Shown one piece after another: positions 25,452-39,399 of a stretch of DNA of 64,000 nt. The position numbers and the translations under genes were made by a program. Each line of letters opens with the position of its first letter. Within the stretch, counting starts at the first letter, position 1. Under the pieces are notes generated by a model that worked only from the letters and a program-made list of their open reading frames with translations, had not been told where the DNA came from and ran no database searches. This DNA comes from Aeromicrobium phoceense. Lineage in GTDB: Bacteria > Actinomycetota > Actinomycetes > Propionibacteriales > Nocardioidaceae. The stretch covers positions 992,001 through 1,056,000 of the forward strand of contig NZ_JACEOG010000001.1 in assembly GCF_013868155.1 (NCBI RefSeq), written 5' to 3'.

Positions 25452-26225
25452 ATGACCTTCCTGTCCTCCCTGCTGCTCGCGGTGCTCGCGGCGGTCACGC
25501 CCGTCACGCTCCCGCCGGCCGGCGGGGTCGCCGACTACCAGCTCGGTGGGGCGTACCGGCCCGCCTCGAAGGTGGACGTCGTCGTGCGGGATCGCACCGA
25601 GAAGCCCGCGCCCGGCGTGTACTCGATCTGTTACGTGAACGCGTTCCAGACGCAGCCGGGCAGCCTGCGCTGGTGGAAAAAGAAGCACCCGAGCCTGCTG
25701 CTGCGCGACGGCAGGGGACGCGTCGTGCGCGACGCCGGCTGGCCCGACGAGGTGCTGCTCGACCTGCGCTCGCCGGGCAAGCGCGCGGCCGCGGCACGGG
25801 TGATGCGGACGTGGTTCGCCTCCTGCGCCGATCGCGGGTACCGCGCGGTGGAGCCGGACAACCTCGACTCGTGGACCCGGTCGCAGCGGCTGATCCGGCG
25901 GTCGCAGGCGCGGGCCTACGCCAAGCGCCTCGTCACCGCCGCGCACGCCGAGGGCCTCGCCATCGCCCAGAAGAACACCGCCGAGATCAACGGCCGCAGG
26001 CTCGGCTTCGACTTCGCGGTGGCCGAGGAGTGCGAGGTGTACCGCGAGTGCGGCCGGTACACGCGGATGTACGGCCGCCGCGTCATCGAGATCGAGTACA
26101 CCGACAACGGCCGCCGCGCGTTCACGCGCGCCTGTCGCGCGCGCGGGTCGAGGATCTCGGTCCTGCTCCGCGATCGCGACGTCGTCCCGCGCGGCGCGAA
26201 GGGCCACGTCTACCGCACGTGCTGA
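25452..26225 (+). CDS. Secreted GH114-type glycoside hydrolase (endo-alpha-1,4-polygalactosaminidase-like)
   Basis: The 257-residue protein has a short signal peptide (MTFLSSLLLAVLAAVTPV). It follows the GH114 pattern: opening strand DYQLGG (28-33), ICYVNAFQTQPG (59-70) and EPDNLDSW with Glu134 and Asp136 as candidate catalytic acids. The family includes enzymes cleaving galactosaminogalactan-type polymers, but bacterial members are mostly uncharacterised. It is divergent from the acyl-CoA oxidase gene and followed by a small hairpin (26231-26245). Confidence 0.75.
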   Translation: MTFLSSLLLAVLAAVTPVTLPPAGGVADYQLGGAYRPASKVDVVVRDRTEKPAPGVYSICYVNAFQTQPGSLRWWKKKHPSLLLRDGRGRVVRDAGWPDEVLLDLRSPGKRAAAARVMRTWFASCADRGYRAVEPDNLDSWTRSQRLIRRSQARAYAKRLVTAAHAEGLAIAQKNTAEINGRRLGFDFAVAEECEVYRECGRYTRMYGRRVIEIEYTDNGRRAFTRACRARGSRISVLLRDRDVVPRGAKGHVYRTC

Positions 26226-26290
26226 TCCCGCCCTCGACGAGAGGGAAAGTCGGGGCTCCCGGCCTGTTAGAGTGCGCCTGAACAATCACC

Positions 26291-26388
26291 TTCCGCAGTG
26301 CCAGGGGAAGCCGGTGCGAATCCGGCGCTGACCCGCAACCGTGAGACCGCCCCTCGGGACGGCGAGCCGGAGCACCTGCCTGTCGGAA
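26291..26388 (+). ncRNA. Cobalamin riboswitch 1
   Basis: The core shows the cobalamin aptamer landmarks in order: GCCAGGGGAAGCCGGTG, then AATCCGGCGCTGACCCGCAACCGTGA and the 3' AGCCGGAGCACCTGCC. TTCCG (26291-26295) pairs with CGGAA (26384-26388) to close P1. A TAGAGT box at 26268-26273 may be its -10 element. It precedes the secreted alpha/alpha-barrel gene by about 85 bases and should repress it when B12 is plentiful. Confidence 0.93.
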
Positions 26389-26439
26389 CCGGCCACACGC
26401 TGTCGAGGAACGCAGCGGGCGGAGCTGATGACATCGGCC

Positions 26440-26465
26440 CCTTCCCGTCCTGTGCAGCGGGAAGG
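26440..26465 (+). promoter_or_regulatory. Shine-Dalgarno-sequestering hairpin of riboswitch 1
   Basis: CCTTCCCG (26440-26447) pairs perfectly with CGGGAAGG (26458-26465), which contains the ribosome binding site for the ATG at 26474. This is the likely expression platform: ligand-bound aptamer leaves the hairpin intact and translation off. Confidence 0.7.
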
Positions 26466-26473
26466 AAACCCCC

Positions 26474-28006
26474 ATGAGTACATCCCTGCGTCGACGCGCC
26501 CTCGCGGTGCTCGCAGGCGGCGCGGTCGCGGTGTCCACCGCCGTCGCCGTCGCCCCCTCCGCCTCGGCGGCCTCCACCCCGTCCACCTCCGCGGCGGGCC
26601 AGTGGCTCTCCGCGCAGCTGACAAACGGCGTCGTCCACAACGACCAGTGGGACTATGACGACTTCGGTCTCACGCTCGACGTCCTCGGGGCCCTGCGCGC
26701 GCTCGGCGTCCAGCCGGCCGTCCAGCAGACGATCCTCTCCACCGTCACCTCCCGCGTCGACGAGTACGTCGAGTCGACCTTCAACGAGGTCACGACGTTC
26801 TACACGGCGTCGGCCGGCAAGCTCCTGCTCGCGGTCGACGCCGCCGGGGGCGACGTCGCCTCGGTCGGCGGTCGTGACCTGGTCGCCCAGATCGAGGCTG
26901 CCACGAACGACGAGACCGGCGAGTCCAGCGACACCTACGGACTCTTCGGCCAGACATTCGCCACCCGCGGCCTGATCGCCGGCGACAGCGACGAGGCCGC
27001 CGCGTCGGTGGCTTACGTCGCGGCGCAGCAGTGCGCGGACGGGACCTTCCGTCAGGTGCTCACGGCGCCCTGCCCTGAGGTGCCGGAGATCGATACGACC
27101 ACGGCTGCCCTCAACGCCCTGGTGGACGCGCGCGAGGCCGGACTCGACGTCGACGCTGCGGTCATCGACCGCGCCGTGGACGCAATCGCCGCCGCCCAGG
27201 CGGCCGACGGCTCCTTCGTCGGCAACGGCGTCCCCAACACGAACAGCACCGGCCTGGCCGCCGTGGCGCTGAGCCGCGCGGGTCGTGCCGCCGAGGCGAC
27301 GAAGGCCGCCTCGTGGATCGCCCGCCACCAGGTCACCGAGGCCACGGGCGGGAAGCTCGCCTCGGAGACCGGCGCGATCGCCTACGACCGGGCGGCCCTG
27401 ACCGCGGGCACCGCGGACGGCATCGACGAGCTCGCGATCGACCAGTGGATCCGCGCCTCGACGCAGGCGGCTCCGGCCCTCGCGCTGCTCTCGTCGCCGC
27501 GTGCCGCGGCGGCCGTGCCGCGGTTCGCCCGCTCGGGCGGCACCGTCAACGTCACCGCGAGCGGTCTCGCCGCCGGCTGGAGCAGCACGGCGCGTGTCGC
27601 CGGTGGCTCCACCGCCCGAAAGGTCGTGCCGGCCGCGGGCCGCGCCACCTTCACGCTCCGTGTCCCGAAGGGCACCGCCCGTCGCACGGTCGCTGTCTCC
27701 GACGCCACCGGCCGGACGGTCGCCACCACGTCGGTCCAGGTGCTGGCCGCCAAGAAGCTGCGGGTCTCGTCGAAGTCCAAGGTGCGCCGCGCCAAGGTGC
27801 AGAAGGTCGTCGTGCGCGGCCTCGCCGCCGCCGAGCCGGTGCGCGTCTACTACCGCGGCAAGCTGGTCAAGCGCGGCGTCGCGTCGAAGAGCGGGACGTA
27901 CACGTACCGCCTGAAGGTGGGCCGGAAGACGGGCAAGGTCAAGGTCATCGTCCGTGGCGCCTACGCCGAGCGCAACGGCGTGAGGGTCTTCCGGGTCGTC
28001 AAGTGA
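26474..28006 (+). CDS. Secreted alpha/alpha-barrel protein, intrinsic-factor-like (putative B12 capture)
   Basis: The 510-residue exported protein has a signal peptide at 1-33. Residues about 35-345 contain prenyltransferase/terpene-cyclase-type helical repeats (DDFGLTLDVLGALRALG, YGLFGQTFATRGLIA, IDTTTAALNALVDA, NTNSTGLAAVALSRAG; QAADGSFVGN turns). This fold is also the alpha domain of intrinsic factor, haptocorrin and transcobalamin. An Ig-like domain and a very basic beta-rich tail (about 350-510) follow and could tether it to the wall. It is directly controlled by a cobalamin riboswitch and overlaps a DUF4430-type gene by 4 bases, so extracellular cobalamin binding is a strong inference. 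No enzyme active site is visible. Confidence 0.75.
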   Translation: MSTSLRRRALAVLAGGAVAVSTAVAVAPSASAASTPSTSAAGQWLSAQLTNGVVHNDQWDYDDFGLTLDVLGALRALGVQPAVQQTILSTVTSRVDEYVESTFNEVTTFYTASAGKLLLAVDAAGGDVASVGGRDLVAQIEAATNDETGESSDTYGLFGQTFATRGLIAGDSDEAAASVAYVAAQQCADGTFRQVLTAPCPEVPEIDTTTAALNALVDAREAGLDVDAAVIDRAVDAIAAAQAADGSFVGNGVPNTNSTGLAAVALSRAGRAAEATKAASWIARHQVTEATGGKLASETGAIAYDRAALTAGTADGIDELAIDQWIRASTQAAPALALLSSPRAAAAVPRFARSGGTVNVTASGLAAGWSSTARVAGGSTARKVVPAAGRATFTLRVPKGTARRTVAVSDATGRTVATTSVQVLAAKKLRVSSKSKVRRAKVQKVVVRGLAAAEPVRVYYRGKLVKRGVASKSGTYTYRLKVGRKTGKVKVIVRGAYAERNGVRVFRVVK

Positions 28007-28848
28007 GCCGACTGCTCCGTCGTGTCCTGGCGGCGACCCTCCTCGGGGTCGCCGCCGGACCCGCGTCCCTCAGCGCACCGGCCCAGGCCGCGGCGTGCAG
28101 CGGCAGCCAGGGCGTCACGGTCGTGGTGGGCTCGAGCGTCGGGTGCGACTCCGACGGTGGTGGCCGTGCCGCGAGCAACTTCACCGACGCCGGCCACCGG
28201 CTGACCTACGCGTCGCGCGCTCCGGGATTCGTGTGCCGTGTCGACGGTGCGCCCGCGTCGGACCCCTGCGTCGAGGCCTCCCCGAGCGACGCCTACTGGG
28301 CGCTGTTCTATTCGGACGGGAAGTCCGGCTGGGCCTACGCGAGCGTGGGTGCCTCCTCGCTGAAGGTGCCGCAGGGCGGCTCCGTCGCGTTCGTGTTCCA
28401 GACCTCGTCCTCGCGGACGTGGCCGTCGGTGCAGCCAGCGGTCGCACCGGCGCCGACCCGGGAGACGACGCGTCCCACCTCCGGGACGTCGAAGCCGGGT
28501 GCGAAGGACAAGCCGCGTCCGAAGGGCTCGACCGAGCGCACCACCGCCACCGCAGCGCCGAAGGCGGCCGTCCCCGGCGCCTCGGCGACCCCGTCCGCGG
28601 GGACCTCGCCGGCCACGTCGGGGCCGACCCCGTCGGCGACGCCGTCGTCCAGTGCCACGCCCACCACCGAGGCGCCGACGACCTCCGGTGGGGACGAGCC
28701 GGTCGCCGGTGCGCCCGCGGTCCAGCCCACGGCAGCCGAGGCCGGGTCCGACTCGACGTCGCCCGCCGCCCTGGTCGCGGGAGCCGGCGTCGTGGTGCTG
28801 CTGGCCGCTGCCGGGGGCGTCACGTGGTACCGACGCCGGTCCGGCTGA
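28003..28848 (+). CDS. Membrane-anchored DUF4430-type (transcobalamin C-domain-like) protein 1
   Basis: The 281-residue protein starts at GTG 28003 overlapping the previous stop. It has a signal peptide (1-30) and a DUF4430-like domain (about 36-133) with the signature VCRVDG, Cys89, DAYWALFY and WAYASVG. A long Pro/Thr/Ser-rich stalk (about 140-245) and one C-terminal membrane helix ending in RRRSG follow; there is no LPxTG motif. DUF4430 corresponds to the beta domain of transcobalamin and intrinsic factor. Together with the upstream barrel protein it could form a two-part cobalamin clamp displayed above the membrane. Confidence 0.78.
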   Translation: MSRLLRRVLAATLLGVAAGPASLSAPAQAAACSGSQGVTVVVGSSVGCDSDGGGRAASNFTDAGHRLTYASRAPGFVCRVDGAPASDPCVEASPSDAYWALFYSDGKSGWAYASVGASSLKVPQGGSVAFVFQTSSSRTWPSVQPAVAPAPTRETTRPTSGTSKPGAKDKPRPKGSTERTTATAAPKAAVPGASATPSAGTSPATSGPTPSATPSSSATPTTEAPTTSGGDEPVAGAPAVQPTAAEAGSDSTSPAALVAGAGVVVLLAAAGGVTWYRRRSG

Positions 28849-28885
28849 CGGTCGCGGGGGAGTAGACTCGCGGGCGTTGGACCAA

Positions 28886-28982
28886 CGTCCGGCCCAGGGG
28901 AAACCGGTGAGATTCCGGTGCTGTGCCGCAACCGTGAGCCCCGCCCCACCCGGCGGAGTGAGCCGGGAACCCGCGCCGGACG
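28886..28982 (+). ncRNA. Cobalamin riboswitch 2
   Basis: P1 is formed by CGTCCGGC (28886-28893) and GCCGGACG (28975-28982). Between them are the conserved CCCAGGGGAAACCGGTG, ATTCCGGTGCTGTGCCGCAACCGTGAGCC and GAGCCGGGAACCC elements of cobalamin aptamers. A TAGACT box at 28863-28868 may be the -10 of an internal promoter. A small hairpin (29041-29045 with 29051-29055) next to the ribosome binding site of the following T-component gene may be its expression platform. Confidence 0.93.
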
Positions 28983-29066
28983 GCCACCACCACATGTTGT
29001 CGCGCAACGACGGGTGGGCGATCGCCCTCGTGGACCTCGCCCCCGTACCGCGGGGAAGGGGACCGG

Positions 29067-30209
29067 ATGACCGCCGTCGTCGACTCCACCCCCGTCAGGA
29101 GCCCAGCCACCGGGCGTCCCCGGCGCGAGCTGCACCCCGGCGCGTGGTGGCTGTGGGCGCTCGGCCTCGCGGCGGGCGCGTCGTTCACGCTCAACCCCTT
29201 CCTGCTGCTGGTCATCGTCGCGATCGCGGCGCTCGTGGTGGCGGCGTGCCGCGGCGACGCCCCGTGGGCCCTGTCGTTCCGCTACTACCTGTACTTCGGG
29301 CTGCTGATCGTGGTGATGCGCGTCGTCTTCCGCATCCTGCTCGGCGGCGGCTCGGCACCGGGCGACCCCGTGCTGTTCGGCCTGCCCGAGATCCCGCTGC
29401 CCGAGGTGGCGCGGGGCGTCCAGCTGCTCGGTGACGTCACGGTCAACGAGGTGCTGCTGGGCCTCTACGACGGCATGCGCCTGGCCACGCTGATCATCTG
29501 CATCGGCGCGGCGAACTCCCTGGCGAACCCCAAGAAGCTGCTCGCCGCCGCGCCGCCGGCGCTCTACGAGGTCGGCGCGGCCCTGGTCGTCGCCGTCTCG
29601 GTCTTCCCCCAGCTGGCCGAGAGCGTGCGCCGGGTGAACCGCGCGCGCAAGCTGCGCGGTGACGCGAGCCGCGGCACCGGCGCGATGCACCGCATCGTCA
29701 TCCCCGTGCTGGAGGACGCCCTCGACCGCTCGATGACGCTCGCCGCCGGGATGGACGCGCGGGGCTACGGCCGTTCCGGCACGGTCGCGCCTCGCGACCG
29801 CTTCGCCACGGGGGTGCTGATGCTGGTGGGCCTGTTCGGCCTCAGCGTGGGCACCTACGGCTACCTCGACGGCACGGCCCCGCGCTTCCTGTCCTACCCG
29901 ATGCTGGCCGTGGGCCTGGTCTTCGCGGTGCTGGCCCTGCGGTCGGCGGGCCGCCGGGTGCACCGCACCCGCTACCGGCCCATCGCCTGGCAGGCGGCCG
30001 AGTACCTCACCGCGGCGTCCGGCGTGGCCGTGGCGATCGGCCTCAAGGCGCTGTCGACGCAGCAGATCCCCGTGATCTACCCCGACGTCCCGGGCTGGCC
30101 CCCGCTCAGCGTGCTGTCGCTCGCGGTGGTCGCCATCGGCATCCTGCCCGTGTTCGTCGCCCCGCAGGCGCCCGTCGCCCACGACCAGGTGGGGGGTGAG
30201 GACGCATGA
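29067..30209 (+). CDS. ecfT: ECF transporter T component (EcfT/CbiQ-like)
   Basis: This 380-residue membrane protein couples ATPase movement to the substrate-binding S subunit. Hydrophobic segments surround a cytoplasmic domain with the two coupling motifs: NRARKLRG (about 192-199) and MDARGYG (about 230-236). About six to seven membrane helices are predicted, more than the typical five, because of a C-terminal extension of two or three helices. It sits just behind a cobalamin riboswitch and overlaps the ATPase gene (ATGA), which argues for a dedicated B12 ECF importer. Confidence 0.9.
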   Translation: MTAVVDSTPVRSPATGRPRRELHPGAWWLWALGLAAGASFTLNPFLLLVIVAIAALVVAACRGDAPWALSFRYYLYFGLLIVVMRVVFRILLGGGSAPGDPVLFGLPEIPLPEVARGVQLLGDVTVNEVLLGLYDGMRLATLIICIGAANSLANPKKLLAAAPPALYEVGAALVVAVSVFPQLAESVRRVNRARKLRGDASRGTGAMHRIVIPVLEDALDRSMTLAAGMDARGYGRSGTVAPRDRFATGVLMLVGLFGLSVGTYGYLDGTAPRFLSYPMLAVGLVFAVLALRSAGRRVHRTRYRPIAWQAAEYLTAASGVAVAIGLKALSTQQIPVIYPDVPGWPPLSVLSLAVVAIGILPVFVAPQAPVAHDQVGGEDA

Positions 30210-31807
30210 TCTCGTTCGGCGACGTGACCTTCTGGTACGACGGCGCCCAGGACCCGACGCTGCGCGACGTCACCCTCGAGATCGAGGAGGGCGAGCTGGT
30301 GCTGGTGTCCGGCCGCACCGGCTCGGGCAAGTCGACGCTGCTGGGGATGCTCAACGGCCTCGTGCCCCACTTCACCGGCGGCACGCTCGGCGGCGACATC
30401 CGCATCGACGGCTCGTCCGTCCTCGGCAGGCCGCCGCGCGAGCTGGCGCACCTCGTGGGCTACGTCGCGCAGGACCCGGCCTCGGGCTTCGTGGCCGACG
30501 TGGTCGAGGAGGAGCTCGCCTACGGCATGGAGCACCTCGGCCTCGACCCGCAGACGATGCGTCGCCGCGTCGAGGAGACGCTCGACCTGCTCGGCATCGC
30601 CGACCTGAGGCGCCGCTCGGTGCGCTCGCTGTCGGGTGGCCAGCAGCAGCGCGTCGCGATCGGCTCGGTGCTGACGATGCACCCGCGCGTGCTCGTGCTC
30701 GACGAGCCCACCTCGGCGCTCGACCCCACCGCGGCCGAGGACGTCCTGGCCACGATCGCGCGCCTTGTCGACGACCTGGCGCTCACCGTCGTCGTCGCGG
30801 AGCACCGGATGGAGCGCGTCGTGCCGTTCGCCGACCGGCTCGTCGTGGTCGAGGACGGCCGGGTCCGCATCGGCGAGACGGCGGCCCTGCTCGTGGACGC
30901 GCCGGTCGCGCCGCCGCTCGTGCACCTCGGACGCCTCGCCGACTGGAGCCCGCTGCCGCTGTCCGTCCGTGAGGCGCGGCGCCGGGTGAGGCCGCTCGCC
31001 TCGCGGCTCGGTCCGCCGCCCGTTCACGTGCCGTTCGAGCGTCCGCCGGCGCTGCGAGCGCGGGGGATCACCGTGCAGTACGGGCGCTTCGCGGCCGTGA
31101 AGGAGGTCGACCTGGAGGTCGGCCACGGTGAGGTCGTCGCGCTCATGGGCCGCAACGGGTCGGGCAAGAGCTCGCTGCTCTGGGCCGTGCAGGGCACGGG
31201 CGCGCGGGCCGCGGGCGTCGTCGACGTCGACGGGGTGGACCCGGGCGACGTGCGCCCGGCCGAGGCGCGGATGCTGGTCGGCCTGGTCCCGCAGACCTCC
31301 TCCGACCTGCTGTACCTCGAGACCGTCGACCGCGAGTGCGCCGCCGCCGACGACCAGTCCGTCGTCGACCCGGGGACCTGCCGCGCGCTGCTCGACCGTC
31401 TCGCGCCGGGCATCCCCGGCGACCGTCATCCGCGCGACCTCTCGGAGGGGCAGAAGCTGGCCCTCGTCCTGGCGATCGTCCTCACGGCCCACCCCGCGGT
31501 GGTCGTGCTGGACGAGCCGACCCGCGGCCTCGACTACCCGGGCAAGGCGGCCCTCGCGGCGATCCTGCGCGACCTCGCCGCCGAGGGTCGCGGGATCGTC
31601 GTGTCCAGCCACGACGTGGAGTTCGTCGCCACCGTGGCCGACACCGTCGCGGTGATGGCCGAGGGCGAGATCGTCTCCACGGGGCCGGTCCGCACGGTGC
31701 TGGCGGAGTCGCCCGCCTTCGCGCCCCAGGTGTCGAAGGTGCTCGGTCACGACTGGCTCACCGTCGACGAGGTGTCGGCCGCGCTGCCCACGGAGGTGGT
31801 CCGGTGA
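30206..31807 (+). CDS. Fused ECF transporter ATPase (EcfA-EcfA)
   Basis: The 533-residue protein contains two ABC ATPase domains in one chain, replacing the usual EcfA1/EcfA2 pair. Domain 1 has Walker A GRTGSGKST (36-44), signature LSGGQQQR and Walker B VLVLDEPTSALD. Domain 2 has Walker A GRNGSGKSS, a degenerate signature LSEGQKLA and DEPTRGLD. The asymmetric signature suggests the two composite ATP sites are not equivalent. Both ends overlap neighbours by 4 bases (ATGA and GTGA), so T, A and S are translationally coupled. Confidence 0.93.
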   Translation: MISFGDVTFWYDGAQDPTLRDVTLEIEEGELVLVSGRTGSGKSTLLGMLNGLVPHFTGGTLGGDIRIDGSSVLGRPPRELAHLVGYVAQDPASGFVADVVEEELAYGMEHLGLDPQTMRRRVEETLDLLGIADLRRRSVRSLSGGQQQRVAIGSVLTMHPRVLVLDEPTSALDPTAAEDVLATIARLVDDLALTVVVAEHRMERVVPFADRLVVVEDGRVRIGETAALLVDAPVAPPLVHLGRLADWSPLPLSVREARRRVRPLASRLGPPPVHVPFERPPALRARGITVQYGRFAAVKEVDLEVGHGEVVALMGRNGSGKSSLLWAVQGTGARAAGVVDVDGVDPGDVRPAEARMLVGLVPQTSSDLLYLETVDRECAAADDQSVVDPGTCRALLDRLAPGIPGDRHPRDLSEGQKLALVLAIVLTAHPAVVVLDEPTRGLDYPGKAALAAILRDLAAEGRGIVVSSHDVEFVATVADTVAVMAEGEIVSTGPVRTVLAESPAFAPQVSKVLGHDWLTVDEVSAALPTEVVR

Positions 31808-32619
31808 GCGGCCTGCGATCCGCCGAGGCCGTCCCGGTCACCCTGCGGTCCGCGCTCGTGCTCGGCGCCGCCAGCGTCGCGGGGCTGCTCATGCTGCTGT
31901 GGCCGCTGATCTTCGCGCCCGCGCCGGACCAGACCCGTGTGGACCAGCCCTTCATCTTCATGGTGCTGATGCCCGTGGTCGTCCTGGTGGTGATCGCGGA
32001 GCTGTCCGAGGGCGGCCTGGACTCCAAGGCGCTCGCGATGCTGGGGGTGCTGAGCGCGATCAACGCCGCCGTGCGGCCCCTCGGCGCGGGCGTGGCCGGC
32101 GTCGAGCCGATCTTCTTCCTGCTGATCCTCGGCGGTCGGGTCTTCGGGCCGGGCTTCGGCTTCGTGCTCGGGTGCACGAGCCTGTTCGCGTCGGCGCTGC
32201 TCACCTCCGGCGTGGGGCCGTGGCTGCCGTTCCAGATGCTGTGCGCGGCGTGGGTCGGCATGGGCGCCGGTTTGCTGCCGCGGCGGTTCACCGGGCGGTC
32301 GGAGATCGCCGTGCTCGCGGTCTACACGGTGATCGCGGCGTTCGCCTACGGGCTGCTGATGAACCTGTCGTCCTGGCCGTTCACCCTCGGCATCGCGATC
32401 CCCGGCGCGGAGGACTCGCTGGCCATGGTGCCGGGCGACCCCGTGCTGGAGAACCTGCAGCGCTTCCTCGTCTTCACCCTGCTCACCTCGTTCTGGGGCT
32501 GGGACCTCGGCCGCGCGATCACGAACTGCGTGTTGGTGCTCGTGCTCGGGCCGGCCGTCCTGGCCACGTTGAGGCGCGCCGCCCGGCGCGCCCGGTACCT
32601 CTCCAAGGAGTCCACATGA
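31804..32619 (+). CDS. ECF transporter S component (putative cobalamin-specific)
   Basis: The 271-residue protein has about six to seven membrane helices. It starts at GTG 31804 overlapping the ATPase stop. Segments such as ALAMLGVLSAINAAVRPLGAG and LLILGGRVFGPGFGFVLGCTSLFASALL resemble S components that bind vitamins in the membrane. Specificity cannot be read from sequence, but the riboswitch and the flanking DUF4430 genes point to cobalamin or cobinamide. It is followed by another overlapping gene (ATGA). Confidence 0.85.
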   Translation: MSGLRSAEAVPVTLRSALVLGAASVAGLLMLLWPLIFAPAPDQTRVDQPFIFMVLMPVVVLVVIAELSEGGLDSKALAMLGVLSAINAAVRPLGAGVAGVEPIFFLLILGGRVFGPGFGFVLGCTSLFASALLTSGVGPWLPFQMLCAAWVGMGAGLLPRRFTGRSEIAVLAVYTVIAAFAYGLLMNLSSWPFTLGIAIPGAEDSLAMVPGDPVLENLQRFLVFTLLTSFWGWDLGRAITNCVLVLVLGPAVLATLRRAARRARYLSKEST

Positions 32620-33257
32620 AGAGCCTGCTCGCCCGCCTCGCCGCGGTGACCCTGCTGTCGGCGAGCGTCGTCGCGCTGCCGACGACGGCCACCGCCGAGG
32701 AGTCCTGCGAGGCGGCCGGCGACGTCCCGATCGTGCTGGAGTTCGGCTCGCTCGACGGCGAGGACCGGGTCGTGTGCGCCCAGGACGCCGTGGGCACGAC
32801 CGGCCTCGAGGCCCTCAACGCCGCCGGCGTCGAGACCGCGGAGACGAGCGGTGCGATGCCGATGGTGTGCCGCATCGACGGACTGCCGGCACCGGAGCAG
32901 GAGAAGTGCGGCAACGCGCTGAACGGCCCGGGCTACTGGGCGTTCCTGGTGGCCCAGGAGGGCCAGGACTGGGGCTACGCCTCGGTGGGCCTGCAGGAGT
33001 ACGAGCTCGTCCCGGGCGACTTCATCGCGCTCAGGTACCACCTGATGGCCGACGGCGAGAACGTCCCGGTCGACGCCGCCGCCGACGCCTCCACGCGTGC
33101 CGATGCCGAGGTCGCGGACCACGAGAACCACGGCGACCAGGCCGTGACCGACGATGAGTCGTCCTCCCTCGCCACGGTCGCGCTGCCCATCGCGATCGTC
33201 GCCGCCCTGCTGGTGGCCGTGGCCGCCTTCGTCGTCGCGCGCCGCCGCCGCGACTGA
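32616..33257 (+). CDS. Membrane-anchored DUF4430-type protein 2
   Basis: The 213-residue protein has a signal peptide (1-27) and a DUF4430 domain (about 35-145) that includes the family's TTGLEALNAAG helix (61-71), VCRIDG (84-89), PGYWAFL and WGYASVG, then an acidic linker and a single C-terminal membrane helix ending in RRRRD. It shares the VCRxDG, YWA and W-YASVG signature with the protein at 28003-28848, so the two are paralogues. Lacking the long stalk, it would sit closer to the membrane, a natural place to hand ligand to the S component encoded just upstream. Confidence 0.82.
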   Translation: MKSLLARLAAVTLLSASVVALPTTATAEESCEAAGDVPIVLEFGSLDGEDRVVCAQDAVGTTGLEALNAAGVETAETSGAMPMVCRIDGLPAPEQEKCGNALNGPGYWAFLVAQEGQDWGYASVGLQEYELVPGDFIALRYHLMADGENVPVDAAADASTRADAEVADHENHGDQAVTDDESSSLATVALPIAIVAALLVAVAAFVVARRRRD

Positions 33258-33366: not shown

Positions 33367-34533
33367 TCAGTCGGCGGCGGCCAGCAACTCGGCGCTGGCC
33401 TGCTCGATCGCCTCGGGCGAGAGCACGTGCGCGATCGCCATGGCCGCGGCGCCCAGGACGCCGGACTGCTCGCCGCTGACCGACGGCACGATGCGCAGGT
33501 GCTCGGTGGCCAGCGGAAGCGAGCGCCGGTAGACCTCCTCGCGGATGCCGGCCAGCAGGTGCTCGCCGGCCTCGGCGAGGGCGCCGCCGATCACCACCAC
33601 CGACGGGTTGATGAAGTTCACGATCATCGCCAGCACGTCGCCGATGTCGCGGCCCGCCTGGCGCACCGCCTGGATCGCGGCCAGGTCGCCGGAGCGGACG
33701 AGGTCGACGACGTGGGTCGCCGTGGTCACCCCGGGCCGGTCCAGCACCCGCGCGATCGCGGGCCCGGCGGCCAGCGCCTCGAGGCAGCCGACGTTGCCAC
33801 ACCGGCACAGCACGTCGCTGCCGCGGGAGACGCGGATGTGCCCGATGTCCCCGGCGGTGCCCTGCCCGCCGCGCTGGAGCTCGCCGCCGGCGATGATGCC
33901 CGCGCCGATGCCCGTGGCCGCCTTGATGAGGATCAGGTCGTCCTCGTCGGGGAACTGGGTGTCCTGCTCGCCCAGCGCCATGATGTTCACGTCGTTGTCG
34001 ATGAGCACGGGCACGTCGAACGAGCGCCGGACGAACTGCGGCACGTCGAACCGGTCCCACCCGGGCATGATCGGCGGGTTGATCGCGCGACCGGTCGAGT
34101 GCTCCACGGGGCCGGGCAGGCCGATGCCGATGCCGGCGAGGTCCGTGCGGGGGCGGCCGGTCTGAAGCATCAGGCGGTCGACGGTCGCGGTCACCCAACG
34201 CAGGACGGGCACGGGGCCGTCGGCGATGTCCAGGTCCTCGCGGTCCTGCGCCAGCACGGCACCGGAGAGGTCGACGATCGCGGCGCGGGCGTGCCGGGCG
34301 CCGAGGTCGATCGCGGCCACCACGCGCGCCCCGGTGTTGACCGCGAGCAGCGACGGCGGACGGCCGCCCGTGGAGCTGCGGCCCCCGTACGGCGCGATCA
34401 GCCCGAGCTTCAGAAGGAGGTCCACGCGTGAGGCCACGGTGGAGCGCGCCAGACCACTCGACGCCGCCAGCTCGGCGCGGGTCATGGGCCGACCCTCGCG
34501 CTGGAGCAGTGCGAACACGTCGCTGGTCTTCAC
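33367..34533 (-). CDS. ROK-family transcriptional regulator
   Basis: The 388-residue protein has an N-terminal winged HTH (about 1-60; TRAELAASSGLARSTVASRVDLLL) fused to a ROK sugar-kinase-like domain. The sugar-binding GDIGH and zinc motif CRCGNVGCLE are intact, as are nucleotide-site strands IDLGARHARAAIVDL and IGIGLPGPV, so it may bind a sugar and possibly retain kinase activity. It is divergent from the sugar ABC operon, the standard arrangement for a local repressor. Translation starts at GTG 34533. Confidence 0.9.
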   Translation of the reverse strand: MKTSDVFALLQREGRPMTRAELAASSGLARSTVASRVDLLLKLGLIAPYGGRSSTGGRPPSLLAVNTGARVVAAIDLGARHARAAIVDLSGAVLAQDREDLDIADGPVPVLRWVTATVDRLMLQTGRPRTDLAGIGIGLPGPVEHSTGRAINPPIMPGWDRFDVPQFVRRSFDVPVLIDNDVNIMALGEQDTQFPDEDDLILIKAATGIGAGIIAGGELQRGGQGTAGDIGHIRVSRGSDVLCRCGNVGCLEALAAGPAIARVLDRPGVTTATHVVDLVRSGDLAAIQAVRQAGRDIGDVLAMIVNFINPSVVVIGGALAEAGEHLLAGIREEVYRRSLPLATEHLRIVPSVSGEQSGVLGAAAMAIAHVLSPEAIEQASAELLAAAD

Positions 34534-34540
34534 GGTGCTG

Positions 34541-34556
34541 ATTCAACCATTCAGCC
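34541..34556. promoter_or_regulatory. Tandem direct repeat in the ROK/ABC divergent promoter
   Basis: ATTCAACC and ATTCAGCC lie head to tail, and TTCAA (34542-34546) also forms an inverted pair with TTGAA (34559-34563). The AT-rich block is centred between the two divergent starts and is a reasonable operator for the ROK regulator. Confidence 0.4.
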
Positions 34557-34626
34557 TTTTGAACGTCCAGCCGACAACTTTTACCGAATACTCGACAGAA
34601 GTGGAGATCTGTGTCACAGTGCTTGC

Positions 34627-36150
34627 GTGAACGAGGCTGACCCGAACGTGCGCGAGAACGCGCCGGTGCTGCGCGTCCGCGCCGTGACGAAGGCCTTCGT
34701 CGGCAACCAGGTCCTCCACGGTGTGGACCTGGATCTGGTCGCCGGACAGGTGCTCGGACTCGTGGGCGAGAACGGCGCCGGGAAGTCGACGCTGATGAAG
34801 ATCCTCGCCGGCGTGCACCCGGCCGACTCCGGCTCCATCGAGCTCGACGGCGAGGCGGTGACCTTCGGCCACCCCGTCGAGGCGCAGCGCGCCGGGCTCG
34901 CCACGGTCTTCCAGGAGTTCAACCTGCTGCCCGAGCGGACGATCGCCGAGAACATCCACCTCGGTCGCGAACCCCGCGGTCGCGGTGGCCTCGTCGACAC
35001 GCGCCGCATGGAGCAGGAGACCACCGCACTGCTGACCGGGCTGGGCATCGAGGGCCTGCGTGCGTCGCGCCGGGTCCGCTCGCTCTCGGTCGCCGAGCAG
35101 CAGATCGTCGAGATCGCCAAGGCCGTCAGCTTCGACGCCCGCGTCATCCAGATGGACGAGCCGACCGCCGCGCTGGCCGACCACGAGGTCGAGCTGCTCT
35201 ACGGGATCGTCCGCCGGCTGACCTCGCGCGGTGTCGCCATCGTCTACGTCTCCCACCGCCTGCGCGAGGTGCTGGACCTGTGCGACACGGTGACCGTGCT
35301 GAAGGACGGCCGCCAGGTCGACACGCGCCCGGCCTCCGAGCTGGACGAGGCCACGCTGGTGCGCCTCATGGTGGGCCGGCCGATGGACTCGTTCATCCCC
35401 GACCCGACCCCCGGCACCACGGTGGGCGAGCCGCGACTGCAGCTGCGCGGCGCCGGCAACGGCTACGTCGACGACATCGACCTGACGCTGCACGCCGGCG
35501 AGATCGTCGGCATCGCGGGCCTGCAGGGCTCCGGCCGCACCGAGCTGCTCGAGGGGATCTTCGGGATCGAGCCGTTCACCCGCGGCGAGCTCACCGTCGA
35601 CGGCGCGGCGACCCCGATCGGCTCCCCGCGCCGCGCCATCCGCTCCGGTCTGGCGCTCGTGACCGAGGACCGCAAGGCCACCGGCCTGTCCCTGCAGCAG
35701 TCCCTGCTCGACAACGCGCTCGGCGTGGTCCGCGCCGTCTTCCCGCGCCGCACCGAGGCGGCTCGGCGCGAGGTGCCCGGTCTGTTCGGCTCGCTGTCGG
35801 TCTCGGCCCGCTCGCTGAGCCAGGAGGCCCAGTTCCTGTCCGGCGGCAACCAGCAGAAGGTCGTCCTGGCCCGATGGCTGGTCACCGACCCGAGGATCGT
35901 GCTCCTCGACGAGCCCACGCGCGGCATCGACGTCGGCGCGAAGCACGCCATCTACGAGGTGATGCGCGAGCTGGCCGCCCGCGGGATCGCCGTGCTCATG
36001 GTGTCCAGCGAGCTGCCCGAGGTGATCGGGATGTCCGACCGCGTCCTCGTGATGCGCGACGGCCGGCTCGCCGGCGAGCTGCCCGGCGGGTCCGACGAGG
36101 AGACGATCCTGTCGCTCGCGGCCGGACTGGACGAGGAGATCGCCTCATGA
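34627..36150 (+). CDS. Sugar ABC transporter ATP-binding protein (RbsA/MglA type)
   Basis: This 507-residue tandem ATPase energises a CUT2-class sugar importer. The N-terminal domain is canonical (GENGAGKST, LSVAEQQIVEIAKA, QMDEPTAAL). The C-terminal domain has the degenerate Walker A GLQGSGRTE that is normal for RbsA/MglA/AraG proteins, with LSGGNQQKVVLARWL and LLDEPTRGIDVGAK. GTG 34627 is the likely start. It overlaps the first permease gene (ATGA). Confidence 0.94.
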   Translation: MNEADPNVRENAPVLRVRAVTKAFVGNQVLHGVDLDLVAGQVLGLVGENGAGKSTLMKILAGVHPADSGSIELDGEAVTFGHPVEAQRAGLATVFQEFNLLPERTIAENIHLGREPRGRGGLVDTRRMEQETTALLTGLGIEGLRASRRVRSLSVAEQQIVEIAKAVSFDARVIQMDEPTAALADHEVELLYGIVRRLTSRGVAIVYVSHRLREVLDLCDTVTVLKDGRQVDTRPASELDEATLVRLMVGRPMDSFIPDPTPGTTVGEPRLQLRGAGNGYVDDIDLTLHAGEIVGIAGLQGSGRTELLEGIFGIEPFTRGELTVDGAATPIGSPRRAIRSGLALVTEDRKATGLSLQQSLLDNALGVVRAVFPRRTEAARREVPGLFGSLSVSARSLSQEAQFLSGGNQQKVVLARWLVTDPRIVLLDEPTRGIDVGAKHAIYEVMRELAARGIAVLMVSSELPEVIGMSDRVLVMRDGRLAGELPGGSDEETILSLAAGLDEEIAS

Positions 36151-37142
36151 AGGCACGTCTGGCAGGTCTGGACTCGACGATGATCGTGTTCGTCGTGCTG
36201 GCGGTCTCGATCGTCGCCGGCTCGATCATCACGGCGCTCGAGGGCCGCAACTTCTTCAGCGTCGGCAACATCGACAACGTCCTGACCACCATGACGATCC
36301 TGGGCCTGATCGCGATCGGCCAGACCCTCGTGATCCTCGTGGGCTCGCTGGACCTCTCCGTGCCCTTCATGGTCAGCCTCGCCAGTGTTCTGGCCGGCGG
36401 GATCATGGCCGACCGCTCCGCGAACATCGCCCTCGGCGTCGCGGTGGCGCTGGGCGTCGCGGTGCTCTTCGGCCTGCTGAACGGCCTGATCGTCAGCATG
36501 CTCCACGTCCACGGCTTCATCGCCACGCTCGGCACCGGCCTGATCGTCTCGGGCTTCCTCGGGTCGAACTACCAGGGCAGCTCGGGCACGGCGCCGTACG
36601 CCTTCCGGCTGCTCGACGCCACGCGCATCGGCCCCGTGCCGGTGGCCACGCTCATCATGCTCGTGTGCGCCGGGCTGGCCGTGCTGATGCTGCGCCGTAC
36701 GCGCCTCGGCCACCACATCTACGCCGTCGGTGGCAACGCCGAGGTGGCCCGCATGTCGGGCGTCCGGACGCAGGTGCCGATCGTCGCGGCGCACGTCATC
36801 TGCTCCGTGACGGCCGCGCTCGCCGGACTGCTGCTGCTCGCGCGCCTCGGCGTCGGCCAGCCGACGGTCGGCTCGCAGGCCGGCTACGACCTGATGTCCA
36901 TCGCGGCGGTCGTGCTCGGCGGCACCCTCCTCTCGGGCGGCAAGGGCAGCATCGTCGGCACGATCGCGGGCGTCGGCATCTTCGCCGTCCTCGACAACGT
37001 CATGGGCGTCATGGAGCTGAACCCGTTCCTGAAGGACGTGGTGCGCGGCATCGTCATCGTCGTCGCGGTCGCCGTCTACGCGCGCCGCGAGATCGACCGG
37101 CGACCCGAGCGCTTCGGCGCGACGAAGGAGGTCGTCTCATGA
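36147..37142 (+). CDS. CUT2 sugar ABC permease 1 (RbsC-like)
   Basis: The 331-residue permease has about nine hydrophobic segments. It carries the BPD_transp_2 signatures GQTLVILVGSLDLSV, GNAEVARMSGV (cytoplasmic coupling loop) and AAVVLGGTLLSGGKGS. It overlaps the ATPase gene upstream and the second permease downstream, and probably forms a heterodimer with the latter. Confidence 0.93.
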   Translation: MKARLAGLDSTMIVFVVLAVSIVAGSIITALEGRNFFSVGNIDNVLTTMTILGLIAIGQTLVILVGSLDLSVPFMVSLASVLAGGIMADRSANIALGVAVALGVAVLFGLLNGLIVSMLHVHGFIATLGTGLIVSGFLGSNYQGSSGTAPYAFRLLDATRIGPVPVATLIMLVCAGLAVLMLRRTRLGHHIYAVGGNAEVARMSGVRTQVPIVAAHVICSVTAALAGLLLLARLGVGQPTVGSQAGYDLMSIAAVVLGGTLLSGGKGSIVGTIAGVGIFAVLDNVMGVMELNPFLKDVVRGIVIVVAVAVYARREIDRRPERFGATKEVVS

Positions 37143-38215
37143 GCATGAGCGTGCGCGCGCTGCCCCTCCACGAGGGCACCCCCGGCCGACGGTTCCTGGG
37201 CGTCCTGGCCACCCCCGGCGGCGCCGTCTTCCTCCTCGTCATCGCGCTGCTCCTCGCGATCATCGTGTCCAACCCGAGCTTCGCCGAGGGCAACTCGCTG
37301 ATTCGGTTCGCGGGTCGCACGGCGCCGATCGCGATCGCCGCGATGGGCCAGTACTTCGTCATCGTCAGCGGCGAGTTCGACCTCTCCATGGGCGCGGTGA
37401 TCGCCGCCCAGGTCGTCCTGGCCGGCAACGTCATCGGTCAGGACGAGTCGCGGATCCTGCCGGGGCTGCTGCTGATGCTGGCCGTCGGCGCCGGGATCGG
37501 GCTGCTCAACGGGCTGGCCACCACGCTGCTCAAGGTGCCGAGCTTCATCGTCACGCTCGGCATGATGCTGTCGCTGACGGGTCTCGTGCGATACGTCACC
37601 GGCGGCGCCGCGACCGGCAACCCCTCCGACCGCTTCCGCGAGATCGGCCGCGGCGGCATCGAGAACGTGCCGGTCGTCGGGATGATCCCGTACCCGCTGA
37701 TCGTGCTCATCGCTGTCGGAGCGTTCGCCGTGTGGCTCATGCGCCGTCCGTTCGGTCGCACCCTGATCGCCGCCGGCGACAACCCCGAGTCCGCACGCTT
37801 CTCCGGCACGCCGCTGTGGTGGACCAAGACGCGGGCCTTCATGATCTCGTCCCTGTCCGCGACAGTCGCCGGCATCCTGCTGGTCGGCTACGCCGGCGTT
37901 CACCCCTCGGTCGGCGGCGGCTACGAGTTCGCCGCCATCACGGCGGTCGTGCTCGGCGGCGTCGTGCTTGGCGGCGGACGCGGCTGGGTCCTCTCGGCCG
38001 CGGCGGGCGCCTTCGCGCTCGAGCTGCTCTTCGTGCTGCTGACCAGCCTCGGCATCGCGTCGACGTGGCGCGACACCGTGCAGGGCCTCATCATCATCGC
38101 CGCCGTCGCCCTCGCGGGCCGGGCCTGGCAGGGCGCAGGGCGCCGCCGCGGCCCCACGACTTCTCCACCCCCATCACCCCAGCCCGCCACGGGCGCAACG
38201 ACAGGAGAGAACTGA
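37139..38215 (+). CDS. CUT2 sugar ABC permease 2 (RbsC-like)
   Basis: This 358-residue second channel subunit has the motifs GQYFVIVSGEFDLSMGAV, GDNPESARFSG and ITAVVLGGVVLGGGRGW. The Pro/Thr-rich C-terminal tail (PTTSPPPSPQPATG) is unusual for the family. Its stop overlaps the start of the binding-protein gene. Confidence 0.93.
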   Translation: MSMSVRALPLHEGTPGRRFLGVLATPGGAVFLLVIALLLAIIVSNPSFAEGNSLIRFAGRTAPIAIAAMGQYFVIVSGEFDLSMGAVIAAQVVLAGNVIGQDESRILPGLLLMLAVGAGIGLLNGLATTLLKVPSFIVTLGMMLSLTGLVRYVTGGAATGNPSDRFREIGRGGIENVPVVGMIPYPLIVLIAVGAFAVWLMRRPFGRTLIAAGDNPESARFSGTPLWWTKTRAFMISSLSATVAGILLVGYAGVHPSVGGGYEFAAITAVVLGGVVLGGGRGWVLSAAAGAFALELLFVLLTSLGIASTWRDTVQGLIIIAAVALAGRAWQGAGRRRGPTTSPPPSPQPATGATTGEN

Positions 38216-39399
38216 TGCGCGCATCCATGAGAGGGGTACTGGTGTCGGCCGCGGCCGTCCTGGTACTGGCCGGCTGCAGCACGGACGACGTGCCCGACTC
38301 CGGCGACGACGACTCGGGATCCAAGGACACCGAGTGGTTCGTCCAGGCTGACTTCGACCGTCAGGACGAACAGCGCAGCGCCACCTTCGAGGGCGATCCC
38401 GCCACGCCGTGGATGCAGTACATCGCCGGCGACATGGCCGACACCGCGAAGTTCAAGACCGAGGGCGCCAAGAAGGTCTGCTTCGCGAACGCCTCGATCA
38501 GCAACCCGTGGCGCCAGACCGGCTGGATCACGATGCAGCAGCAGCTGAAGGTGATGCAGGACGAGGGCGTCGTCTCGGAGATGGAGACCCGCGACGCGCA
38601 GGACTCCGACGACACGCAGATCGCCGACATCGACTACTTCATCAAGGAGGGCAACTGCGACGCCTTCATCATCTCGCCGAACTCCACGGCGGCGATGACC
38701 CCGGCCGTCGAGCGCGCCTGTGAGACCGGCAAGCCGGTCGTGGTGTTCGACCGCGGCGTCGACACCGACTGCGCCACCACGTTCATCCACCCGATCGGTG
38801 GCTACGCGTGGGGCATCGACACGGCCGAGTTCCTCGTGGACAACCTCGAGAAGGGCGACAAGGTCATCGCGCTGCGCATCCTGCCCGGCGTCGACGTCCT
38901 GGAGACCCGCTGGGCCGCGGCCGAGAAGATCTTCGAGGAGAACGACATCGAGGCGGAGGACCAGTTCACCGACGCCGATCCCACCAAGATCAAGCAGATC
39001 ATCACCGACGCCATCAACCAGGACGACATCAAGGGCGTCTGGATGGACGCCGGTGACGGTGCCGTCGCGGCCATCGAGGCCTTCGAGGACGCGGGCAAGG
39101 ACTACCCGGTCATGACCGGTGAGGACGAGATGAGCTTCCTGCGCAAGTGGGAGGACACCGGCCTGACCGGCCTGGCGCCCGTCTACTCCAACTTCCAGTG
39201 GCGCACCCCGCTGCTGGCCCTGCAGAAGATCTTCGCGGGCGAGGAGGTGCCGGCCGAGTGGGTCCTGCCACAGTCGCCGATCACCGAGGACGACCGCGCG
39301 GACTACCTGAAGGCGAACGACGGGATGCCGGACGGGCACTACGCCAAGTTCGGCGGCGAGGACCTCCCGGGCTTCCCGAAGGCCTGGCAGGACCGCTGA
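38215..39399 (+). CDS. Sugar ABC transporter substrate-binding lipoprotein
   Basis: The 394-residue lipoprotein has a lipobox LAGC near residue 20 and an Asp/Ser-rich tether. The periplasmic-binding-protein type 1 core shows KKVCFANASISNPWRQTGW, DAFIISPNSTAAMTPAVE, KPVVVFDRGVD and GVWMDAGDGAVAA, the layout of RbsB-type sugar binders. The cavity residues do not reveal the sugar. ATG 38215 overlaps the preceding stop by one base (TGATG). A stem-loop follows the stop. Confidence 0.92.
   Translation: MRASMRGVLVSAAAVLVLAGCSTDDVPDSGDDDSGSKDTEWFVQADFDRQDEQRSATFEGDPATPWMQYIAGDMADTAKFKTEGAKKVCFANASISNPWRQTGWITMQQQLKVMQDEGVVSEMETRDAQDSDDTQIADIDYFIKEGNCDAFIISPNSTAAMTPAVERACETGKPVVVFDRGVDTDCATTFIHPIGGYAWGIDTAEFLVDNLEKGDKVIALRILPGVDVLETRWAAAEKIFEENDIEAEDQFTDADPTKIKQIITDAINQDDIKGVWMDAGDGAVAAIEAFEDAGKDYPVMTGEDEMSFLRKWEDTGLTGLAPVYSNFQWRTPLLALQKIFAGEEVPAEWVLPQSPITEDDRADYLKANDGMPDGHYAKFGGEDLPGFPKAWQDR

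What the first reader, a model, noticed from the sequence alone, without database searches (positions are those of the whole stretch)
26265..33257. Candidate surface B12-capture relay built from intrinsic-factor-like parts feeding an ECF transporter
Seen: two cobalamin riboswitches; an exported alpha/alpha-barrel protein; two exported single-pass DUF4430-like proteins; EcfT, a fused EcfA-EcfA and an S component, all in one run with 4-bp overlaps within each half. Known: animal intrinsic factor, haptocorrin and transcobalamin consist of an alpha/alpha barrel plus a C-terminal beta domain related to DUF4430, and ECF systems import vitamins. Inference: the barrel and DUF4430 proteins bind corrinoid outside the membrane, as two chains where animals use one, and pass it to the S subunit. 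I know of no described relay of this kind in actinobacteria.
Basis: partly seen in the sequence, partly recalled or inferred. Interest (0 to 1): 0.93.

Follow-up and report, generated by a model that had tools for sequence, protein, structure and literature searches.

The report
Bacterial two-chain intrinsic-factor-like B12 importer
Many actinobacteria carry a gene cluster, usually preceded by predicted B12-sensing RNA switches, whose exported proteins are predicted to fold like the two halves of human intrinsic factor and likely hand vitamin B12 to a membrane importer, which extends to this group an idea published in 2007 for other bacteria.

The parts
26246..26397 (+). cobalamin riboswitch 1, before the barrel gene
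   Evidence: RF00174, 34.5 bits against gathering 31.5
26440..26465 (+). predicted 9-pair hairpin that covers the purine-rich stretch in front of the barrel's start codon; possible translational switch
   Evidence: minimum-energy fold of 26390-26476; weak, 22 of 200 shuffles fold at least as well
26474..28006 (+). exported alpha/alpha-barrel protein (residues about 34-341) with a beta-strand-rich C-terminal part (345-510); no C-terminal membrane segment
28003..28848 (+). exported, membrane-anchored transcobalamin-beta-like (SLBB/DUF4430-like) protein 1
   Evidence: profile match to the alignment of protein 2, E 2.9e-12; BLASTP 30% identity; hydropathy; not folded itself
28857..28992 (+). cobalamin riboswitch 2, before EcfT
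   Evidence: RF00174, 36.2 bits against gathering 31.5
29067..30209 (+). EcfT (CbiQ family)
   Evidence: Pfam CbiQ 7.1e-7
30206..31807 (+). fused EcfA-EcfA ATPase
   Evidence: two ABC_tran stretches; TIGR04520 1.5e-86, below its cut-off for the whole protein
31804..32619 (+). S component
   Evidence: Pfam ECF_trnsprt 4e-8; relatives in 209 of 393 genomes of the class
32616..33257 (+). exported, membrane-anchored transcobalamin-beta-like (SLBB/DUF4430-like) protein 2

Best explanation
The cluster at 26246-33257 is likely a corrinoid (vitamin B12) uptake system in which an exported barrel protein and two membrane-anchored proteins, predicted to fold like the two domains of transcobalamin, would sandwich corrinoid outside the membrane and pass it to an ECF-type importer, probably shut down by B12 through two riboswitches. 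Shown: gene order, riboswitch matches, families of the ECF subunits, conservation of the arrangement, and its presence in genomes in which no core corrin-ring gene was detected but B12-binding proteins were. Predicted: the two folds, export and anchoring. Inferred: that barrel and lid close on the same corrinoid as in transcobalamin, that the barrel docks on the tethered lid when loaded, and that corrinoid then moves to the S component. Whether the ligand is cobalamin, cobinamide or both is open.
For: Riboswitches: two in the window; a same-strand RF00174 match at E <= 0.001 within 1.5 kb upstream of a cluster gene in 54 of 60 loci, 30 above gathering; AdoCbl, AdoCbl-II or Cobalamin riboswitch directly before the cluster in 7 of 7 further loci scanned. 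Folds. Conserved run barrel - small domain - EcfT - EcfA - S: in the fetched stretches of 61 loci the small domain is in 57 and the barrel in 49. Natural fusions of barrel and small domain in 6 ORFs of 161 loci, plus 4 database proteins that match the L143 fusion over 93-100%. Substrate: 28 of 55 genomes have no CbiC match, 55 of 55 have B12-binding domains, and 27 of the 28 have the riboswitch at the cluster; in 15 of the 28 it is the only RF00174 match found. Precedents: separately made alpha and beta domains of human transcobalamin co-elute only with cobalamin (PMC5599065, section 5 read); acI actinobacteria without B12 synthesis have an ECF module behind cobalamin and AdoCbl riboswitches (PMC5301498, passages read); an ECF transporter for cobalamin and cobinamide is proven in Lactobacillus (PMC5997447, passages read).
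Confidence: 0.76

Rival explanations
1. It is a cobalt importer of the CbiMNQO kind, put under cobalamin riboswitches because cobalt feeds B12 synthesis.
For: EcfT is in the CbiQ family and the ATPases resemble CbiO; cobalt importers are known under cobalamin riboswitches (recalled). The window's genome has the corrin-ring gene CbiC.
Against: The S component matches ECF_trnsprt, not CbiM. No CbiC match in 28 of 55 genomes with the cluster, 27 of them with the riboswitch at it, where cobalt for B12 synthesis would serve little. The exported partners resemble B12 carriers.
Confidence: 0.05
2. The exported proteins bind corrinoid, but as sensor, store or cell-surface decoy, and do not pass it to the S component, which imports on its own.
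For: The barrel is missing in 12 of 61 and 19 of 20 loci, and L059 and L091 have riboswitch and transporter but no exported partner found; the Lactobacillus ECF transporter works without such partners in E. coli (PMC5997447, passages read).
Against: The small domain is in 57 of 61 and 20 of 20 loci, next to EcfT in most; 4-bp overlap of its gene with the S gene in the window.
Confidence: 0.11
3. It imports a B12 fragment other than a corrinoid, such as alpha-ribazole or dimethylbenzimidazole.
For: Riboswitches also control genes for precursors (recalled); substrate not tested here.
Against: Human transcobalamin's beta domain binds the corrin part: monocyano-cobinamide binds in the same way as cyanocobalamin (PMC5599065, passages read); genomes without CbiC would still need a corrin ring.
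Confidence: 0.05
4. The barrel is an enzyme of terpene metabolism, as its database names say, and its place here is incidental.
For: Names such as 'prenyltransferase/squalene oxidase repeat-containing protein'; best folds are drimenyl diphosphate synthase and squalene-hopene cyclase; the window's barrel has D-Y-D-D.
Against: D.DD followed by one of T/S/A/C/F/Y/W occurs in 16 of 80 relatives and followed by T/S in 2. The barrel is exported and fused to the B12-carrier-like domain in 6 ORFs.
Confidence: 0.03

Closest known systems
[quoted passage not shown] 2007, PMC1796856)
   Same: Secreted or anchored transcobalamin-beta-like domain, alpha/alpha toroid partner in either order, second paralogous small protein, operon with CbiO-like ATPase and CbiQ-like protein, proposed B12 scavenging.
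   Different: Here in actinobacteria, with barrel and small domain on separate chains in most loci, cobalamin riboswitches before the genes, a defined S component, and a lineage with both parts apparently circularly permuted. Riboswitches and permutation are not mentioned in the text read.
Animal transcobalamin, intrinsic factor and haptocorrin
   Same: Predicted folds of both domains, and, in the window type, the same internal order of each domain; the operon order barrel then small domain mirrors the chain.
   Different: Two chains, two lids, membrane anchors; no sequence match in PDB searches; binding untested.
ECF-CbrT of Lactobacillus delbrueckii (PMC5997447)
   Same: ECF-type importer; there proven for cobalamin and cobinamide.
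   Different: No sequence relation of the S components found; the exported partners are not part of the system in the passages read.
NCBIfam SCO2321 (NF053823) and SCO2322 (NF040672) families
   Same: The counterparts of barrel and small domain in Streptomyces-type loci, 615.7 and 233.6 bits in L076, above cut-offs.
   Different: The window's proteins are far below the cut-offs (32 of 300, 20.2 of 85 bits) and have the other internal order. The families carry locus names only.
BtuG of Bacteroides (PMC6143338)
   Same: Surface protein that captures B12 for an importer (passages read).
   Different: A lipoprotein that works with BtuB in Bacteroides; I made no fold or sequence comparison.

Membership tests
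Transcobalamin-like clade of SLBB (PMC1796856) | beta-grasp fold with the beta-hairpin insert after the helix | tested here: met
   predicted model only: strands 74-76 and 84-87 between helix 63-69 and strand 106-114; 95 residues at 2.2-2.5 A on transcobalamin and haptocorrin beta domains
Transcobalamin-like clade of SLBB (PMC1796856) | two conserved glycines of the superfamily | not tested
   columns with conserved glycine exist but were not placed on the 2007 alignment
Transcobalamin-like clade of SLBB (PMC1796856) | operon with CbiO-like ATPase and CbiQ-like membrane protein | tested here: met
Transcobalamin-like clade of SLBB (PMC1796856) | host usually lacks key B12 biosynthetic genes | tested here: inconclusive
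   CbiC not found in 28 of 55 genomes, found in the window's own
Pfam DUF4430 (PF14478) | match above Pfam's cut-off | tested here: not met
   no match of P0002 or P0006 at E <= 1; 19 of 36 relatives match, best 4.1e-4
Animal intrinsic factor/transcobalamin/haptocorrin | barrel and beta domain in one chain | tested here: not met
   two genes in the window; fused in 6 ORFs of 161 other loci
Animal intrinsic factor/transcobalamin/haptocorrin | cobalamin bound between the two domains | not testable with these tools
   no ligand or complex prediction at hand
ECF transporter | EcfT, two EcfA ATPase domains and an S component | tested here: met
   CbiQ, two ABC_tran stretches and ECF_trnsprt, above cut-offs
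CbiMNQO cobalt importer | CbiM as substrate-binding subunit | tested here: not met
   S component matches ECF_trnsprt and below cut-off ECF-ribofla_trS, no CbiM match listed at E <= 1
Cobalamin riboswitch RF00174 | score at or above gathering | tested here: met
   34.5 and 36.2 bits against 31.5
NCBIfam SCO2321 / SCO2322 families | score above the curated cut-off | tested here: not met
   32 against 300 bits and 20.2 against 85 bits for the window's proteins
Class II terpene cyclase | conserved DxDD catalytic motif (motif recalled) | tested here: not met
   D.DD followed by T/S/A/C/F/Y/W in 16 of 80 relatives, the window's own D-Y-D-D-F being one of that form; followed by T/S in 2 of 80

The most novel reading that the evidence does not exclude
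Actinobacteria run a split intrinsic factor: a diffusible B12-capturing barrel docks on membrane-tethered lids only when loaded, so corrinoid itself assembles the carrier at the importer; and in the SCO2321/SCO2322 lineage barrel and lid were both circularly permuted, together, while keeping the same partnership.
Probability: 0.35. Interest if true: 0.8.

Novelty: new variant of a known kind. Interest (0 to 1): 0.57.

Why it matters
If true, the human B12 carriers have a working bacterial counterpart with separable parts. That would make B12 capture by Gram-positive cells, and the 2007 idea that animals took their carriers from Gram-positive bacteria, directly testable. It would also give a function to two Streptomyces protein families that NCBI lists under locus names only, and to genes now named as squalene cyclase-like enzymes.

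Tried and rejected
Cobalt import and terpene cyclase readings: see rivals. Sequence link to transcobalamin: profile searches of PDB sequences found none. Sequence link of the S component to a solved structure: none. Intrinsic terminators behind the riboswitches: the two pattern matches lie inside the gene at 28003-28848. Ribosome-binding-site hairpins: seen before both halves, but 22 and 76 of 200 shuffles fold at least as well. Plasmid records: 5 of 72,556 hold a relative of the S component; not pursued.

Circular permutation took several tries. One search used profiles into which permuted members had been drawn and called 10 loci permuted in the barrel and colinear in the small domain, and 1 the reverse. 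with clean profiles left most of these cases as partial matches. One search used motif order for the small domain and a relaxed order rule for the barrel, both set after seeing the data: 16 loci permuted in both, 66 colinear in both, none discordant, and 67 of 149 not decided or lacking one of the two. The loci share ancestry, so these are not independent counts. Doubling test: the permuted barrel profile gains 25-41 bits on doubled targets in 5 of 7 (window 48.1 to 79.6) and nothing in 2; the colinear profile changes by -3.8 to +1.1 bits. For the small domain doubling gives no clear gain and only weak half matches (8-16 bits), so its permutation rests on the order of motifs and halves.

Literature: 10 searches. 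Only the last brought up the 2007 paper. Rodionov et al. 2009 on ECF transporters (PubMed id recalled) is not held and may already list this transporter. No bioRxiv preprints are held. Passages also read without use for the argument: PMC4350170, PMC3766115, PMC2667541, PMC6593275, PMC11107200, PMC8914203.

Full report
What is there. The window lies in a 3.27 Mb genome whose closest named protein relatives are from Aeromicrobium. Two cobalamin riboswitches each precede a block of overlapping genes. Block 1: exported barrel (26474-28006) and exported single-pass protein (28003-28848). Block 2: EcfT, EcfA-EcfA, S component and a second exported single-pass protein (29067-33257). All four junctions inside the blocks overlap by 4 bp. 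The gene before riboswitch 1 is GH114 glycosidase-like (25452-26225) and is not counted as part.

Spread. Relatives of the S component occur in 209 of 393 genomes of the class and, with a profile, in 70 of 198 genomes drawn from the phylum, many of the weaker ones of unknown function. I fetched 60 neighbourhoods, chosen over genera, and added the window. EcfT is found in 60 of 61, the small domain in 57 and the barrel in 49 of the fetched stretches. In 80 named loci, several cut by contig ends, the small domain is in 70 and the barrel in 63. In 20 more distant loci the small domain is in 20 and the barrel in 1. The lid thus seems the constant partner of this transporter and the barrel the dispensable one. 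This agrees with the solved structure of the human beta domain alone with cyanocobalamin (5np4, title).

Regulation and substrate. In 54 of 60 loci a same-strand RF00174 match (E <= 0.001, whole-genome searches) lies within 1.5 kb upstream of a cluster gene; 30 are above gathering. Of 55 genomes searched, 28 have no match to CbiC, a step of corrin-ring synthesis, and all 55 encode B12-binding domains. In 27 of the 28 the riboswitch is at the cluster, and in 15 of them it is the only RF00174 match found (match counts). Cobalt import would be of little use there, so corrinoid import is the better reading. The window's own genome is not among these: it has CbiC and a FecCD-type permease gene next to another cobalamin riboswitch. 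In 7 of 7 scanned loci of one family of mostly small genomes, Rfam finds an AdoCbl (5), AdoCbl-II (1) or Cobalamin (1) riboswitch just before the cluster.

One chain or two. Barrel and small domain are fused in 6 ORFs of the 161 loci: small domain first in five (with two barrels in L057, L070 and L162, one in L142 and L148), barrel first in L143. Four further database proteins match the L143 fusion over 93-100% of its length. Human transcobalamin made as two separate domains co-elutes only when cobalamin is added (PMC5599065, section 5 read), so a two-chain carrier is workable in principle.

Circular permutation. In Streptomyces-type loci the barrel and the small protein are the NCBI families SCO2321 and SCO2322 (615.7 and 233.6 bits in L076). 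Relative to the window type, the halves of both appear swapped. Where both orders could be decided (82 of 149 loci), 16 are permuted in both and 66 colinear in both. The barrel case is backed by a doubling test in 5 of 7 targets; the small-domain case is weaker. The earlier, less clean classifications are told under Tried and rejected.

Prior knowledge. Burroughs et al. 2007 (PMC1796856; abstract, passages and part 1 of section 7 read) described the transcobalamin-like domain in bacteria, its fusion with alpha/alpha toroids in both orders, its operons with CbiO-like and CbiQ-like genes and often a second paralogous small protein, and proposed B12 scavenging. The window's system is therefore an actinobacterial variant of a proposed kind. 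The ten searches (listed under Tried and rejected) turned up no paper that describes the actinobacterial exported partners, their riboswitches or the permutation, as far as listings and passages show. Papers outside the library, Rodionov et al. 2009 above all, could not be checked.

Verdict. Observation confirmed, interpretation partly supported, novelty moderate. The strongest new points are the breadth of the arrangement, the riboswitch evidence in genomes without a detected CbiC, and the lineage in which both parts appear permuted together.

Noticed in passing
L076:4116-6133 and similar loci (L065, L071, L073, L078, L097 and others): Barrel and small domain (NCBI families SCO2321 and SCO2322) both appear circularly permuted relative to the window type.
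   Followed up: partly
L085, L059, L091: EcfT-EcfA-S without any detected exported partner; L059 and L091 keep a cobalamin riboswitch match (53.8 and 40.7 bits), L085 has none nearby.
   Followed up: no
L046: Two barrel and two small-domain genes in a row, with two riboswitch matches in the region (42.3 and 37.6 bits): a tandem duplication of the capture block.
   Followed up: no
window 26474-28006, residues 345-510: The barrel protein carries a confident beta-strand-rich C-terminal part of unknown role; Foldseek rows with Ig- and fibronectin-like modules suggest Ig-like domains.
   Followed up: no
several proteins: The precomputed Pfam domain PF28005 marks small-domain proteins and the L143 fusion; the Pfam copy at hand did not report it, so its name is unknown to me.
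   Followed up: no
window 33367-39399: Next to the cluster lie what look like a ROK-type repressor and a sugar ABC transporter (ATPase, two permeases, binding protein), judged by reading the ORF translations only.
   Followed up: no
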